In this document: positions 4,141 to 33,593 of the stretch, piece after piece
How positions within the stretch are numbered: the first letter of the stretch is position 1
How the letters are laid out: each line of letters begins with the position of its first letter
Assembly (NCBI RefSeq): GCF_000218625.1
Contig: NC_015672.1
Span: forward strand, 868,001-932,000
Source of the DNA: Flexistipes sinusarabici DSM 4947
GTDB lineage: Bacteria > Chrysiogenota > Deferribacteres > Deferribacterales > Flexistipitaceae
Reading direction: 5' to 3'
Length of the DNA: 64,000 nucleotides
Notes under the pieces: model-generated
The model's input: the letters and a program-made list of their open reading frames with translations, nothing else
The model's database searches: none
What the model was told of the DNA's origin: nothing
Translations under genes and position numbers: made by a program

Positions 4141-4210
4141 TGAATATATTTCCACTATATTTAACTTTCCTCCCCATTAATATTATATCAAGTTTCGCAC
4201 TTCGTTTTGT

Positions 4211-4341
4211 CATTGCGAAACCCTGTGGAAACAGGCTTGTGGCAATCTCAAAACAAGAAAAATAGAGAGATTGCTTCGTCGTTTTCACTCCCTGTCCTGT
4301 TAAATGCCACAGGCAATCAGCGAAGCTGATATTTAACAGGG
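4211..4341. repeat. R5+R4 composite interspersed repeat
   Basis: Non-coding stretch of the 4141-4440 gap. R5 module (4211-about 4290) begins GTCATTGCGAAACC, contains GGCAATCTC and its inverse GAGATTGCTTCGTC. R4 module (4296-4341) begins CCTGTTAAAT and ends ATTTAACAGGG with an inner hairpin. The same R5-then-R4 order recurs inside the histidine kinase gene at 26171-26325. Single R4 or R5 copies occur at 13413, 18442, 33551 and 37237. Confidence 0.75.
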
Positions 4342-7763: not shown

Positions 7764-7909
7764 ATAGAGATTTCTTCCCGAGCACTTAAAGCATTAAGTG
7801 CTCGGTCGAAAGAATGTCTGCGGCTAGCACCAGTCTTTTAGACTGGTAAATATGTGTAACATCCTATTTATCCGCCCAAGGCGGATGTTAGACAACACTT
7901 TATGTCATC
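7764..7909. repeat. interspersed repeat mosaic, left flank of IS110 copy 1
   Basis: A mosaic that reads as the reverse complement of 18291-18420: GAGATTTCTTC, a hairpin GAGCACTTAA/TTAAGTGCTC, TGTCTGCGG, an R3 copy (7824-7862), then ATCCGCC/GGCGGAT (7868-7886 region). Its end ...TATGTCATC is the left half of the IS110 target, the right half being at 9176 onward. Confidence 0.65.
7824..7862 (+). repeat. R3 hairpin repeat copy 1
   Basis: 39 bp: CTAGCA, stem CCAGTC / GACTGG with TTTTA loop, then TAAATATGTG and a short tail ending in CAT. Other copies: 13028, 18330 (inverted), 32049 (inverted), 54214 (inverted), 54328, 54458. Confidence 0.8.
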
Positions 7910-7969
7910 GTATATTAAGAAAGTAGGAAAAATTGTTTAATAAGTTGTTAAAAAGTAATATAAGGTTCC

Positions 7970-8120
7970 AGAGCACTGAAGGTGATAAAGGACATGATTG
8001 TCATTGGTTCAATGAAACCGTTCGAGATGTTGTCCCCACCTTCAGCTTTCCGAAACCTGAACGGAACATTAGGCATAAAGCCTGCATGTGTTACGATGAT
8101 AGCGTATAGGAAAGCAAAGC
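7970..8120 (+). ncRNA. candidate bridge RNA of IS110 copy 1
   Basis: Two consecutive stem-loops in the 5' non-coding region. Loop 1: outer stem CTGAAGGTG (7976-7984) / CACCTTCAG (8037-8045) and GGACA (7990-7994) / TGTCC (8031-8035), inner hairpin GGTT...AACC. One side of the internal loop carries TGTCAT (7999-8004), identical to the left target. The other carries TCGAGATG (8022-8029), the complement of the right target CATCTCGA. Loop 2: outer stem GCTTTCC (8045-8051) / GGAAAGC (8109-8115), inner stem AGGC/GCCT (8071-8083). It carries ACGGAACAT (8061-8069), identical to the element's right end, and TACGATG (8092-8098), the complement of its left end CATCGTA. This is the layout known for IS110 bridge RNAs (IS621): target loop then donor loop. 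Transcription is inferred, not shown. Confidence 0.85.
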
Positions 8121-8147
8121 TCAAGTAAAAAAATGAGGAGCTTTACG

Positions 8148-9161
8148 ATGAAGAGCTATGAGAAAGTAGTGGGAATTGATGTATCCAAGGAAACGTTGTC
8201 AATCAGCTTATATGATGGCAAGAGCCACACCGGTTATGAAACAAGAAACACGATAAAATCATTTTTTAATGATTTTGTTAAGAAGGAGAAGGGAGTAGAT
8301 TTTTCCAAAGTTCTTTTTATGCTGGAAAATACGGGAGTATACCATTTAAGATTAGCAACCCATTTGAGCAAGGAATGTGGTTATATTGTAAGTGTAGCGA
8401 ATCCTCTTGTAATAAAGAGGTACTCACAGATGAATTTAAAACGTGCAAAGACAGACAAGGCCGATGCCCGTTTGATAGCGGAGTATGGTTATATTAACGG
8501 AGGTGATTGGCTATTTTCTCCCCGGGATATAGACTATTATAAGATAGATATGAAACTTAAAGCGGTGGAAGATTTTCATAAGCAGATAAATATGTTGAGT
8601 AACCAGATTGAAGCGATTGAATATTTACCTTTCAAAGACAATAGCACACTAAATGCTTATAAAAAACTTATAGAGAATTTTAAGAAAGAGATAAAAAAGA
8701 TAGAAAAAGAATTAGACATATTGCTGCGGGAGAAGTATGTCGAAGAGTATAAATTGCTTTCGAGTATTCCTGGAGTTGGGTTAAAGCTGACAGGAGTGAT
8801 TTTGGGCAAATTAAACGGTTTTGCAAATTTTGATAGAGGTAAGGATGTAACGAGTTTTGTGGGTATATGTCCCAGTATTTACCAGTCAGGGACATCGGTC
8901 AATGGCAGAGGTAAAATATCGAAGAAGGGCAACGGCTATATGCGGACGATACTGTATTTATGCTCACTTTCAGCTTGCAAGTATAATAAATCATGCGCAG
9001 AATTATATGAGAGACTTGTAGCTAAAGGTAAGCCTAAAAAGGTTGCCTTAATAGCAGTAGCGAACAAGTTGATAAGGCAGGCATTTGGTGTATTGAAAAG
9101 TGGCAAACCGTATGATCCGGATCATGCAAATAATTTAACTTTGGTTGCAAAAAATGCTTGA
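8148..9161 (+). CDS. IS110-family DEDD/serine recombinase
   Basis: About 337 residues. The N-terminal RuvC-like DEDD domain begins VVGIDVSKETL (first Asp), then LENTGVYH (Glu) and KTDKADARLIAEY (Asp residues). The C-terminal Tnp20 domain has SIPGVGLKLTG and the SGTSVNGRGKISKKGNGYMR region, where the catalytic serine of the family lies. Start ATG 8148 is preferred to 8133 because GAGGAG lies 8 bp upstream of it. In IS110 enzymes this protein, guided by the bridge RNA, recombines a circular donor with target DNA without staggered target duplication. The gene appears intact in both copies. Confidence 0.92.
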   Translation: MKSYEKVVGIDVSKETLSISLYDGKSHTGYETRNTIKSFFNDFVKKEKGVDFSKVLFMLENTGVYHLRLATHLSKECGYIVSVANPLVIKRYSQMNLKRAKTDKADARLIAEYGYINGGDWLFSPRDIDYYKIDMKLKAVEDFHKQINMLSNQIEAIEYLPFKDNSTLNAYKKLIENFKKEIKKIEKELDILLREKYVEEYKLLSSIPGVGLKLTGVILGKLNGFANFDRGKDVTSFVGICPSIYQSGTSVNGRGKISKKGNGYMRTILYLCSLSACKYNKSCAELYERLVAKGKPKKVALIAVANKLIRQAFGVLKSGKPYDPDHANNLTLVAKNA

Positions 9162-9179
9162 CTTTTAACACGGAACATC

Positions 9180-9440
9180 TCGACTGGAGCGAAGCGGAGA
9201 GATCTCCACCGTTGTTTGACAAAAGAAATACCCCCTCTTGCTCTCCCCCTAAATCAGGGGGAGAAGTGAAGTCCCTTTCCCTAACTTAGGGGAAGGCGTA
9301 AGTCGAGCACCAAGCACTTAAGTAATTATGTGCTCGGTGCTTGAATAGGATGGGGTATGAAAATAATTTTTACCAATGAGACCTCTCCACTATGGTCGAG
9401 GTGACATAAAACTGTCTATCATCCGCCTTGGGCGGGGTAC
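9180..9440. repeat. repeat mosaic right of IS110 copy 1
   Basis: The right half of the target repeat (GCGAAGCGGAGAGATCT, about 9189-9205) is followed by a stem TCTCCCCCTAAATC...GGGGGAG (about 9242-9265), CCTAACTTAGGGGAAGG, GCACCAAGCACTTAAG, one R1 copy (9378-9405, ending TCGAGGTGAC) and CATCCGCCTTGGGCGG (about 9421-9436). The CCTAACTTAGG...GCACTTAAG part recurs inverted at 16621-16665. The end of the mosaic (from 9396) belongs to the duplicated xer segment. Confidence 0.65.
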
Positions 9441-9512: not shown

Positions 9513-10043
9513 ATGAATAATCTTTCACGTGTTTTGTTAAATTATAAAAATTATTTGAGAACTGAGCTTGGTTTTTCAGAGAACACAATTAAGGCTTATA
9601 TACATGATGTTCGGTCTTTTTTTGAATGGTCAGAAAAATATTATGATAAAATAGATATGGTTGATGTTGTTTCCTATATGTCTTATCTGAGGGAAAACAC
9701 ATTTGCTGTTGATACAATTTTAAGAAAGCTGTCAGGTCTGTCTTCTTTTTACGATTTCCTGCTGCAGGAAAAGCTTGTTGGCAATAATCCTTTGAATGCA
9801 GTTCAAAAACCGGGGAGATGGGATAAAATTCCAAAGTTTCTTAATTTTGAAGACATCGACAAACTTCTGGACGCCCCGGATATCAATACTTCTTTCGGTT
9901 TACGTGATAAGGTTTTAATTGAGACTCTATATTCCACAGGGGTCAGAGTGATACTCATGTTACAGATGATAAGAAAAGGAATATTTTGCTTGAAAATCAC
10001 CCGCGTTTCAGAGACAGGAGGCGAAAAGGGGACAGGTAAATAA
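9513..10043 (+). pseudogene. deleted duplicate of the xer tyrosine recombinase gene
   Basis: The first 145 codons are the same as the intact gene at 42870-43766 (one silent difference noticed near 9898). After GVRV the sequence jumps: 385 bp present in the intact copy (43308-43692) are missing, and the last 65 bp of that gene follow out of frame. The Arg of the first box survives, but HxxR, the distal His/Trp and the Tyr are lost, so it cannot recombine. The duplicated block runs from within an R1 repeat (9396 matches 42753) to 10019 (matches 43761), including about 117 bp of identical upstream sequence. It was inserted next to, and partly defines, the 3' end of the TumE-like gene on the other strand. 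Confidence 0.9.
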
Positions 10044-10855: not shown

Positions 10856-12378
10856 ATGTTAAGTATGTTACAAATTGAAGATATCAGAAATATGTACTTT
10901 AACAAAGGCAAGAATGTGTCGGAAATATGCAGAGAAACCGGCTTTGATCGCAAGACAGTAAACAAGTATCTTGAGAAAGAGAACTGGACAGAAGTAAAGC
11001 TGCCGTTACCGGAAGTCAGGGGATCGAAGCTTGATGCGTATGAGCCTGAGATAGACAGATGGTTAGAAGATGACAGAAGAATAAGGCGCAAACAAAGGCA
11101 TACAGCCAAAAGGGTATTTGACAGATTGAGGGAAAAATATCCTGATTTTGAGTGCAGCTACCGGACAGTAGCGAGTTATGTATCAGAGAAGAAGCAGGAG
11201 ATTTACAACCCTAAGCAGTCGTACTTACCTTTAGAGCATAAAGCGGGTGAAGCCCAGATAGACTTCGGTAAGGCTGACTTTGTAGAAAAAGGTGTACCGT
11301 TTTTTGGCTCTTATCTGAGCGTATCATTCCCCAACAGCAATGGCGGTTATCTGCAGCTTTTTAAGGGGGAGAACTTTGAATGCCTTGCCCAGGGATTGAG
11401 AAATATTTTTGAACATATGGGCGGTGTCCCCCATAGGCATTGGTATGACAATTTATCCCCTGTAGTTAAAGATATCTTAAAAGGCAAAGACCGTAATTTG
11501 ACAGAATCATTTATAAGATTCAGGGAACATTACGGATTCGAGTCAGCATTCTGCAATCCGGCTTCCGGTCATGAGAAGGGAAATGTAGAGAATAAAGTTG
11601 GTTATTTAAGGCGTAATCTTCTTGTTCCCGTTCCGGAGTTTTCAGATTTGGAAGAGTACAACCGTGAGCTGCTGGTAAGGTGTGACAAAGATATGAAGCG
11701 TGAGCATTACCGTAAAGGGGAATTTATCTCCAGTCTTTTTGAAGAGGATTTGAAAGCACTCAATCCGCTGCCTACCAGAGTTTTTGAGGCGGAGAGTTAT
11801 GAGCATGTAAGAGTTGATGCTTACGGCAAATTTACATTGAATGACGGTAAACACACCTATTCAGCCTCTCCACGCCTTGCAGGTGGTAGAGCTGTAGTAG
11901 TAAAGAGCCATAACAATATCAAAGTGCTTGATAAAAATATGAAGGAGGTGGTTGTTCACAATAGGCTTTATGGAGAAGAGAGACAGGAATCTATGGATTG
12001 GTTACCATATCTCAGTCAGCTCTCAAAGAAGCCTGGTGCCCTGAAATATACGGGTATTTATAAAATGCTCCCCTGTTCTATCAGGAGTTGGCTTGATAAA
12101 GTATCACCGGGGGAAAATCTTCAGCACTAAAAATGCTTGCAAGTATGACTAAGGAGTCGGGGTTTGATGTGGCAGTAAAATCCCTGGAAAATGCATTGTC
12201 ATGCAATGCCAGTGATTTTGAGAGTATATCCTCTGTTTACAGGAGTATAATCAGCAGGATGCCTGAGCTTAAGCCGGTAAGTCTGTCACCTGATGTTCCT
12301 GAATTGAGAAAGGTTGATTCTGATTTCAGTAAATATGACCGATTATTTAATAGCGAGGTTGGTCATGTCAGTAATTGA
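10856..12378 (+). pseudogene. istA: istA transposase, frameshifted
   Basis: IS21 IstA. The N-terminal HTH (VSEICRETGFDRKTVNKYL) and the DDE core (AQIDFGKADF, WYDNLSPVV, GNVENKVGY) are intact through about residue 420. The frame then ends at 12130 and continues in the -1 frame to 12378 (MLASMTKESGFDVAV...), overlapping the istB start by 14 bp. The shift lies at a G5A4 run near 12108-12117, so one extra base explains it. Programmed -1 frameshifting is possible but the run does not form a canonical X XXY YYZ heptamer in this frame. Total length about 507 residues agrees with IstA. Confidence 0.8.
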
Positions 12379-13150
12379 GTCTGTGGCAGAAGCCTGCAAG
12401 GAGCTGAAGCTGAGCAGGAATATAGTGGATAATATGCAGAAGATACAGGAAGAAGACAGGTATAAGTTTTTACTGCAATTGTTCCAGCTGGAGATACAAC
12501 ATAGGGCTGATAACCGCAGGCAGAGGAATATAAAGAGTGCCGGTTTTTACAACATGAAGAGTTTTTCTGATTATGTGTATGACGATTTAGAGCTTCCGTC
12601 CGGCTTAAGTATATCAGATATAGAATCTGCAGAATTTGTCAGGCGTAAGGAGAATCTAATTTTATACGGGAATTCCGGGACGGGCAAGTCCCACCTTGCT
12701 ACAGCCATTGGTATTAAGGCTTGCATGGAAGATATGCGTGTGGGTTTTTACAGAACAGCCGGATTGGTGAACAAGCTTCTTGAAGCCAGACAGCAGGGGG
12801 CATTGGACAAGTTGTTCAGGAAGCTGTCTAAGCTGGATTTGATAATATGTGATGAGTGGGGATATGTGCCGTTGGATATGGTCGGTGGACAACTGCTATT
12901 TCAGGTGATTTCTGAGTGTTATGAAACCAAGAGCCTGATTATCACCACTAATCTGGAATTCAGCAAATGGGTGAATATTTTTTACGATCAGGAGATGACC
13001 GCAGCTATGATTGACAGGCTGGTTCATCTAGCACCAGCCAGAGGCTGGTAAATATGTGGTACACATTACAGTCATTTGCTGGTATTTCAGGGGGAAAGTT
13101 GGCGAGTGAAAAATTCGCTTGTTAACAAAAAAAATTCCTCACCGAGGTAG
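12365..13150 (+). pseudogene. istB: istB ATPase interrupted by an R3 repeat
   Basis: IstB helper ATPase: Walker A GNSGTGKSHLA, Walker B LIICDEWGY, and TTNLEFSKW. The start is ATG 12365, inside the end of istA. After DRLVH the reading frame enters a 39-bp R3 repeat (13028-13066) and stops at its TAA. Taking the 39 bp out restores HYSHLLVFQGESWRVKNSL, the conserved IstB ending, up to TAG 13148-13150. The disruption is therefore a clean repeat insertion and not random decay. Confidence 0.9.
13028..13066 (+). repeat. R3 hairpin repeat inside istB
   Basis: 39 bp, stem CCAGCC / GGCTGG with AGA loop, followed by TAAATATGTGG and a tail ending CAT. CAT also directly precedes the insertion, so either a 3-bp target duplication or insertion beside CAT is possible. 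The empty site can be read directly from the restored istB frame. Confidence 0.9.
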
Positions 13151-23296: not shown

Positions 23297-23314
23297 GATG
23301 TTCCGTGTTAAAAG

Positions 23315-24328
23315 TCAAGCATTTTTTGCAACCAAAGTTAAATTATTTGCATGATCCGGATCATACGGTTTGCCACTTTTCAATACACCAAATGCCTGCC
23401 TTATCAACTTGTTCGCTACTGCTATTAAGGCAACCTTTTTAGGCTTACCTTTAGCTACAAGTCTCTCATATAATTCTGCGCATGATTTATTATACTTGCA
23501 AGCTGAAAGTGAGCATAAATACAGTATCGTCCGCATATAGCCGTTGCCCTTCTTCGATATTTTACCTCTGCCATTGACCGATGTCCCTGACTGGTAAATA
23601 CTGGGACATATACCCACAAAACTCGTTACATCCTTACCTCTATCAAAATTTGCAAAACCGTTTAATTTGCCCAAAATCACTCCTGTCAGCTTTAACCCAA
23701 CTCCAGGAATACTCGAAAGCAATTTATACTCTTCGACATACTTCTCCCGCAGCAATATGTCTAATTCTTTTTCTATCTTTTTTATCTCTTTCTTAAAATT
23801 CTCTATAAGTTTTTTATAAGCATTTAGTGTGCTATTGTCTTTGAAAGGTAAATATTCAATCGCTTCAATCTGGTTACTCAACATATTTATCTGCTTATGA
23901 AAATCTTCCACCGCTTTAAGTTTCATATCTATCTTATAATAGTCTATATCCCGGGGAGAAAATAGCCAATCATCTCCGTTAATATAACCATACTCCGCTA
24001 TCAAACGGGCATCGGCCTTGTCTGTCTTTGCACGTTTTAAATTCATCTGTGAGTACCTCTTTATTACAAGAGGATTCGCTACACTTACAATATAACTACA
24101 TTCCTTGCTCAAATGGGTTGCTAATCTTAAATGGTATACTCCCGTATTTTCCAGCATAAAAAGAACTTTGGAAAAATCTACTCCCTTCTCCTTCTTAACA
24201 AAATCATTAAAAAATGATTTTATCGTGTTTCTTGTTTCATAACCGGTGTGGCTCTTGCCATCATATAAGCTGATTGACAACGTTTCCTTGGATACATCAA
24301 TTCCCACTACTTTCTCATAGCTCTTCAT
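23315..24328 (-). CDS. IS110-family DEDD/serine recombinase, copy 2
   Basis: Intact recombinase of about 337 residues, differing from the copy at 8148 in two residues (KECSYI for KECGYI, NGDDW for NGGDW). Start ATG 24328 has GAGGAG upstream. Domain content is as in copy 1: the DEDD residues (GIDVSKE, LENTGVYH, KTDKADARL) and the C-terminal SGTS region are all present. It lies between gspF and the response-regulator gene, transcribed toward gspF. Confidence 0.92.
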   Translation of the reverse strand: MKSYEKVVGIDVSKETLSISLYDGKSHTGYETRNTIKSFFNDFVKKEKGVDFSKVLFMLENTGVYHLRLATHLSKECSYIVSVANPLVIKRYSQMNLKRAKTDKADARLIAEYGYINGDDWLFSPRDIDYYKIDMKLKAVEDFHKQINMLSNQIEAIEYLPFKDNSTLNAYKKLIENFKKEIKKIEKELDILLREKYVEEYKLLSSIPGVGLKLTGVILGKLNGFANFDRGKDVTSFVGICPSIYQSGTSVNGRGKISKKGNGYMRTILYLCSLSACKYNKSCAELYERLVAKGKPKKVALIAVANKLIRQAFGVLKSGKPYDPDHANNLTLVAKNA

Positions 24329-24355
24329 CGTAAAGCTCCTCATTTTTTTACTTGA

Positions 24356-24506
24356 GCTTTGCTTTCCTATACGCTATCATCGTAACACATGCAGGCTTTA
24401 TGCCTAATGTTCCGTTCAGGTTTCGGAAAGCTGAAGGTGGGGACAACATCTCGAACGGTTTCATTGAACCAATGACAATCATGTCCTTTATCACCTTCAG
24501 TGCTCT
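24356..24506 (-). ncRNA. candidate bridge RNA of IS110 copy 2
   Basis: Same sequence as 7970-8120 in the opposite orientation, so the same two loops and guides: TGTCAT and TCGAGATG for target, ACGGAACAT and TACGATG for donor. The right guide has one mismatch to this copy's target (CATCCCGA instead of CATCTCGA). Confidence 0.8.
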
Positions 24507-24698
24507 GGAACCTTATATTACTTTTTAACAACTTATTAAACAATTTTTCCTACTTTCTTAATATACGATGACATTTTCCGTCATTTCGATGAGCCACCGA
24601 CAGGTGGTGAAGAGAAATCTCAATTGCTGTTTGACAACAGGATGGTGCTAATATTTTTGGATGATTTACTTCATATAAACAGCATGATATAATAATAT

Positions 24699-33549: not shown

Positions 33550-33593
33550 CGTCATTGCGAGGAACCGCCTTCGGGCGGAGACGAAGCAATCTC
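33550..33593 (+). repeat. R5 repeat copy
   Basis: CGTCATTGCGAGGAACCGCC, TTCGGGCGG, AGACGAAGCAATCTC: imperfect hairpin with CCGCCTTCGGGCGG centre. Just before it, ATTTACCTGTCCCCTTTT (33532-33549) is the reverse complement of 10023-10040. Confidence 0.7.

What the first reader, a model, noticed from the sequence alone, without database searches (positions are those of the whole stretch)
7970..8120. IS110 bridge RNA readable by eye: both guide loops match target and donor
In the 238-bp 5' non-coding part of the IS110 element two stem-loops follow each other. Loop 1 carries TGTCAT (7999-8004) and TCGAGATG (8022-8029) on opposite sides of an internal loop; these equal, respectively complement, the sequence on the two sides of the insertion (TGTCAT, CATCTCGA). 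Loop 2 carries ACGGAACAT (8061-8069) and TACGATG (8092-8098), which equal or complement the element's own right and left ends (ACGGAACATC, CATCGTA). Stems CTGAAGGTG/CACCTTCAG and GCTTTCC/GGAAAGC close them. This is the target-loop plus donor-loop layout known for IS110 bridge RNAs. The match of four short segments to four independent DNA ends makes chance unlikely. I know of no description of this element, but I cannot search.
Basis: partly seen in the sequence, partly recalled or inferred. Interest (0 to 1): 0.88.

Follow-up and report, generated by a model that had tools for sequence, protein, structure and literature searches.

The report
IS110 jumping gene with bridge RNA
A mobile DNA element in the hot-brine bacterium Flexistipes carries the recently discovered kind of "bridge RNA" that tells it where to insert; comparison of dozens of copies shows that the reading is right, but it is one more example of a known mechanism.

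Summary
The window lies in Flexistipes sinusarabici (genome length 2,526,590 bp). The element, 7909-9178, is one of at least seven intact near-identical IS110-family copies there. Its recombinase is a relative of IS621. Its upstream non-coding region folds into two guide loops, and a covariance model built from eight close relatives finds the same RNA upstream of homologous recombinases in Bacteroidota. Guides co-vary with DNA: when the target guide differs, the flanks differ to match (permutation P about 5e-6 among close copies, 2e-4 among distant relatives). When the element's own end differs (ACGG, ACAG, ATGG), the donor guide differs likewise. Targets in Flexistipes are REP-like palindromes (63 empty sites). 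Excision would create a -35/-10 promoter across the circle junction, as in IS621. Not every copy matches: two of seven intact copies have two mismatches in the right target guide. Near-identical copies carry different right guides aimed at different REP variants, which points to natural retargeting. RNA expression and recombination were not tested. This is a new member of a well-described kind.

The parts
7909..9178 (+). IS110-family element (boundaries ambiguous by 3-4 bases, because CAT/CATC is shared by flank and element)
   Evidence: Boundaries from alignment of copies L001-L009 and their flanks
7903..7908 (+). left target flank TGTCAT, matched by the left target guide
   Evidence: nine of ten left ends in this genome are preceded by YGTCAT (the tenth, L010, lacks its left tip)
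9176..9183 (+). right target flank CATCTCGA, start of the REP-like palindrome CTCGACTGGAGCGAAGCGGAGAGATCT; CAT is shared with the element end
7911..7916 (+). TATATT, predicted -10 box; with TTGACT of the right end it forms a promoter (17-bp spacer) only in the circular form
   Evidence: the same arrangement in four relatives
7970..8122 (+). bridge RNA body (two stem-loops); the full transcript probably starts near 7920-7925 and its 3' end is not defined
   Evidence: covariance model R1, 183.5 bits (the window sequence was among those used to build the model)
7976..8045 (+). target-binding loop, closed by CTGAAGGTG/CACCTTCAG and GGACA/TGTCC
   Evidence: compensatory changes in helices 1 and 2
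7999..8004 (+). left target guide (LTG) TGTCAT
8022..8029 (+). right target guide (RTG) TCGAGATG, complementary to CATCTCGA; differs between copies
8045..8115 (+). donor-binding loop, closed by GCTTTCC/GGAAAGC
   Evidence: helix 5 has changes on both sides in all six pairs
8061..8069 (+). left donor guide (LDG) ACGGAACAT, equal to the element's right end
   Evidence: co-varies with the right end as ACGG/ACAG/ATGG
8092..8098 (+). right donor guide (RDG) TACGATG, complementary to the element's left end CATCGTA
8148..9161 (+). IS110 recombinase, 337 aa (start at 8148 preceded by GAGGAG; 8133 is an alternative upstream ATG)
   Evidence: PF01548 and PF02371; IS621 matched at 5e-35
9157..9178 (+). 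right end with TTGACT (-35 half of the junction promoter) and donor sequence ACGGAACAT
23302..24571 (-). second copy of the element in the window (recombinase gene up to 24343; bridge RNA body 24354-24506)
   Evidence: flank CATCCCGA, one mismatch to its guide TCGAGATG

Best explanation
This is an autonomous IS110-family insertion sequence of the IS621 type. Its left end encodes a bridge RNA. The first loop (LTG TGTCAT, RTG TCGAGATG) base-pairs with the two strands of a genomic target at the edge of a REP-like palindrome. The second loop (LDG ACGGAACAT, RDG TACGATG) pairs with the element's own joined ends. The DEDD/serine recombinase would bring the two together and recombine them within the shared CAT (core). 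Excision as a circle joins TTGACT in the right end to TATATT in the left end and so makes the promoter that transcribes the bridge RNA (and probably the recombinase), so expression is tied to the mobile form. Shown here by sequence comparison: element ends, multiple copies at matching sites, guide/flank and guide/end covariation, conserved RNA fold, conserved catalytic residues, conserved junction promoter sequence. Inferred from IS621: RNA synthesis, circle formation, binding and strand exchange.
For: Seven intact copies 98-100% identical plus fragments in the genome. All intact copies sit after [TC]GTCAT and before CATTGCGA, CATCTCGA or CATCCCGA. G010 group A: LTG TTTTTCTCAT sits at flank TTTTTCTCAT and RTG TGAGAATG mostly at CATTCTCA; its variant L038 has RTG CGAGAATG and flank CATTCTCG. 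G010 group B: donor guide and right end both changed to ACAGAACAT. L043: LTG AAGCAGTCAT equals its flank, and donor guide and right end are both ATGGAACAT. Permutation of flanks: 116 of 135 positions matched versus 85 expected, P 5e-6 (redundant set); 48 of 54 versus 31.5, 4 of 720 permutations as good (one per class). Distant relatives: 58 of 70 versus 33, P 2.4e-4. Fold covariation in A2 (12 pairs with both sides changed) and A3 (86.6% of cells paired versus 37-47% for slid controls). Model R1 hits 30+ relatives just upstream of the recombinase. Junction promoter TTGAC[AT]-17/18-TATATT in five elements. IS621 and ISCro4 relatives in PDB.
Against: No transcript or recombination data. RTG mismatches: L003 and L004 two of eight, L002 one; distant L095 and L099 match poorly on the right. 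Structure counts on A3 lean towards the structure because that alignment was fitted to it, and it includes two antisense hits (L005-, L020+). The core is CAT, not the CT of IS621. No clean orthologous empty site was found: the G016 locus L160 diverges before the insertion point.
Confidence: 0.95

Rival explanations
1. The left-end structure is a cis-regulatory 5' UTR or small RNA controlling recombinase translation (as described for ISPpu9), and the matches to DNA are a by-product of common ancestry of repeats.
For: A short CTCA/TGAG complement lies over the ribosome-binding site (8120-8137, sequence). ISPpu9 has regulatory small RNAs (PMC8450116, abstract).
Against: A regulatory UTR does not explain why four segments change together with flanks and element ends. 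Regulation could exist in addition.
Confidence: 0.03
2. The element is specific for REP-like palindromes through protein recognition of the palindrome, and the RNA matches arise because guides and flanks are both derived from the same repeat family.
For: In Flexistipes and in G010 group B the target is always the GTCAT..CGA repeat.
Against: G010 group A, with the same RNA architecture and a 61% identical protein, sits at a different sequence (TTTTTCTCAT/CATTCTC) that its guides match. Distant relatives sit at other sites matching their own guides.
Confidence: 0.02

Closest known systems
IS621 bridge RNA and recombinase (IS110 family; Durrant et al. 2024 PMC11208160; Hiraizumi et al. 2024 PMC11208158)
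   Same: Recombinase domains and DEDD/S residues, RNA in the left end upstream of the gene, target loop followed by donor loop, 5' guide equals the top strand and 3' guide complements the top strand, promoter across the joined ends, insertion in REP palindromes
   Different: Distant protein (phmmer E 5e-35); shared core CAT instead of CT; right target guide up to 8 nt including the core (4-7 in IS621); REP family is the GTCATNNCGA type
seekRNA of IS110 and IS1111 elements (Siddiquee et al. 2024 PMC11187229)
   Same: RNA-guided target choice; order of guides as reported for the IS110 type; natural redirection by change of the guide (there ISEc11/ISXne4, IS1111 type)
   Different: Here guide variants occur among near-identical copies in one genome and in a sister genome
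REP-targeting insertion sequences (Tobes and Pareja 2006 PMC1525189; ISPpu9 PMC8450116)
   Same: Repeated insertion at a fixed place in REP-like palindromes
   Different: Different REP family and host phylum (Deferribacterota)

Membership tests
[quoted passage not shown]
   PF01548 3e-18, PF02371 1.8e-19; D11, E60, D103, D106, S247 invariant in A1 and aligned to IS621 DEDD/S241
IS110 family, IS621-type with bridge RNA | Long non-coding left end upstream of the recombinase gene (IS1111 type usually has it downstream) | tested here: met
   239 bases left (7909-8147), 17 bases right of the stop codon
IS110 family, IS621-type with bridge RNA | Two-loop RNA: target loop then donor loop | tested here: met
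   Folds of the window and of the alignments; model search
IS110 family, IS621-type with bridge RNA | Target guides match the insertion flanks and co-vary with them | tested here: met
   some mismatches remain (L003, L004, L095, L099)
IS110 family, IS621-type with bridge RNA | Donor guides match the element's ends and co-vary with them | tested here: met
   ACGG/ACAG/ATGG in guide and right end alike
IS110 family, IS621-type with bridge RNA | Sigma-70-like promoter sequence across the joined right and left ends | tested here: met
   TTGACT-17-TATATT; conserved in four relatives; 2% chance for the -35 alone. Activity not tested
IS621 itself | CT core dinucleotide | tested here: not met
   The shared core is CAT in all copies read. 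CT defines IS621, not the IS110 family as a whole
IS110 family, IS621-type with bridge RNA | Bridge RNA is transcribed and bound by the recombinase; recombination needs it | not testable with these tools
   needs small-RNA sequencing and in vitro recombination
IS110 family, IS621-type with bridge RNA | Excises as a circle | not testable with these tools
   needs junction PCR or reads
any RNA family curated in Rfam 15 | Match to a curated covariance model at gathering score | tested here: not met
   No Rfam 15 hit anywhere in the window

The most novel reading that the evidence does not exclude
Within Flexistipes, near-identical copies of one IS110 element carry at least three right target guides (TCGAGATG, TCGCAATG, TCGAAATG) on almost the same backbone, tracking variants of one REP family (CATCTCGA, CATTGCGA, CATTTCGA). 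If so, this is ongoing natural retargeting of a bridge RNA by one- to two-base changes, with mismatch tolerance or guide exchange between copies explaining the mismatched ones.
Probability: 0.45. Interest if true: 0.45.

Novelty: new member of a known kind. Interest (0 to 1): 0.3.

Why it matters
It shows that bridge RNA guides can be read correctly from raw sequence and confirmed by copies in the same genome. It adds a Deferribacterota lineage from a hot-brine organism, with a CAT core, as a candidate for comparison with IS621 and ISCro4. It also offers a small natural experiment on how guide changes and mismatches relate to target choice.

Tried and rejected
A single-protein scan of genome contigs found nothing; the alignment-based scan did. 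Rfam gave no match. I thought that the L003/L004 insertions might be shared with the sister genome G016 (similar right flanks in L153/L159), which would make their mismatched guides a later change; flank comparison showed similarity over only about 220 bases (L003/L153) and no long match (L004/L159), i.e. composite repeats, so orthology was dropped. An orthologous empty site in G016 was sought and not cleanly found. The first REP pattern was too strict and found none. Weaker antisense hits of the RNA model were taken as self-complementarity of the hairpins. In one search the automatic extraction failed for L084 and L097, which were left out of the test; by eye both agree with their flanks.

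Full report
Where it lies. The window is G000:C1:868001-932000 of a single-contig genome of 2,526,590 bases. That length equals the published Flexistipes sinusarabici genome (PMC3236037), a moderately thermophilic halophile of the phylum Deferribacterota from Red Sea brines. That paper remarks on 86 transposase genes.

The observation. The left end folds into two successive stem-loops at -57.8 kcal/mol, z = -3.3, no shuffle of 200 as stable. There is no Rfam match.

The element. The gene at 8148-9161 encodes a 337-aa protein with PF01548 and PF02371 and matches IS621 (5e-35) and ISCro4 (1e-34) in the PDB. The residues that align with IS621 D11, E60, D102, D105 and S241 (essential there, PMC11208158) are conserved in all four Deferribacterota proteins aligned. 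The genome holds seven intact copies at 98-100% identity and several fragments. Aligning them fixes the ends: CGTATATTAAG on the left and ACACGGAACAT on the right, with CAT shared with the target. Nothing suggests a target duplication other than this shared CAT.

Targets. Intact copies sit between [TC]GTCAT and CATTGCGA (L005, L006, L007; also the fragments L011 and L014), CATCTCGA (L001, L003) or CATCCCGA (L002, L004), each the first arm of an imperfect palindrome. The pattern GTCATNNCGA-N4-34-GNNATCTC occurs 63 times in the genome and never in the reversed control; by the two variable bases these are TG 31, CG 10, TA 8, CT 7, CC 4, TC 2, TT 1. Several reconstructed empty sites (for L003, L005, L006, L007, L011) exist letter for letter elsewhere in the genome (compare). 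So the target is a REP-like repeat, as for IS621 in E. coli.

Guide and flank co-vary. Copies L001, L002 and L009 carry RTG TCGAGATG; L003-L008 and L010 carry TCGCAATG. In the sister genome G016 the guides seen are TCGAAATG and TCGAGATG, and its right flanks are CATCTCGA (3), CATTTCGA (3) and CATCCCGA (1), with no CATTGCGA; several of its contigs break in the guide region, so guides and right flanks cannot be paired copy by copy there. In G010 (same order) group A elements have a different target guide (TTTTTCTCAT, TGAGAATG) and sit at TTTTTCTCAT/CATTCTCA (one at CATTCTCG, a G-U pair); L038 shows a single-base matched change (CGAGAATG, CATTCTCG); group B has TCGCAATG and sits at CATTGCGA. L043, from a Thermoanaerobaculaceae MAG, has LTG AAGCAGTCAT equal to its flank. 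Permuting flanks among 15 copies gives P = 5e-6; one per guide class gives 4 of 720. The 15 copies are related, so the first figure overstates the evidence; the second is the safer one. Seven more distant elements (six Bacteroidota, plus L043, which is also in the first set) give 58 of 70 matched against 33 expected, P = 2.4e-4. Examples by eye: L097 RTG GTAATATG at CATATTAC, L092 AAGATATG at CATATCTT, L076 TCGAAATG at CATTTCGA.

Donor guide and element end co-vary: ACGGAACAT/ACGGAACAT in Flexistipes, ACAGAACAT/ACAGAACAT in G010 group B, ATGGAACAT/ATGGAACAT in L043.

The RNA. In eight close relatives 12 of 43 predicted pairs have compensatory changes. A covariance model made from them finds the RNA in more than 30 relatives directly upstream of the recombinase gene, mostly in Bacteroidota. 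On the 41 matches 86.6% of cells are paired, against 37-47% in slid controls, and all nine pairs of the target stem and all six of the donor stem change on both sides; that alignment was fitted to the structure and holds two antisense hits, so the figure is somewhat flattering.

Junction promoter. Joining the ends gives TTGACT-17-TATATT in the window element, TTGACA-17-TATATT in G010 group A, TTGACT-17-TATATT in group B and in a Pontibacter element, and TTGACA-18-TATATT in L043. In the integrated form the -35 box is supplied by whatever flank happens to be there. Durrant et al. describe the same arrangement for IS621 (PMC11208160).

Exceptions. L003 and L004 have two mismatches in the RTG and L002 has one. 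Durrant et al. [quoted passage not shown] Whether these reflect tolerance at insertion or a guide that changed afterwards is open; an attempt to date them through shared insertions failed.

Verdict. A textbook IS110 bridge RNA in a host order that the main paper does not name in its text (no occurrence of 'Deferribacter'). The mechanism is known; the copy-level guide variants are the most interesting part, though natural redirection has been described for IS1111 elements (PMC11187229). Whether this particular element is among the thousands scanned in the supplementary data of Durrant et al. could not be checked.

Noticed in passing
23302-24571 (minus strand): A second, nearly identical copy of the element lies in the same window; its right flank is CATCCCGA, one mismatch to its guide.
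   Followed up: yes
8117-8139: AAGCTC...GAGCTT and CTCA/TGAG complements could hide the ribosome-binding site GAGGAG of the recombinase; GCTC could instead pair with GAGC at 7971-7974 at the base of the bridge RNA. A possible translation switch, partly conserved in relatives.
   Followed up: no
4209-4249, 24580-24621, 33551-33593: Unoccupied REP-like palindromes GTCATNNCGA...GNNATCTC; part of a genome-wide family of at least 63, with several variants of the two middle bases.
   Followed up: partly
L003 and L153 right flanks; G016 contigs: REP-like repeats occur in larger composite repeats (about 100-220 bases) shared between the two Flexistipes genomes at different places.
   Followed up: partly
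9513-10043: An ORF resembling the N-terminal part of a XerC/XerD-type tyrosine recombinase (by eye) that ends abruptly, followed by an IS21-like istA/istB pair at 10856-13051 (by eye).
   Followed up: no
L076 (Niastella sp. MAG): A Bacteroidota relative sits at TGTCAT/CATTTCGA, the same repeat type as in Flexistipes, which suggests that this REP-like repeat family is spread over several phyla.
   Followed up: no
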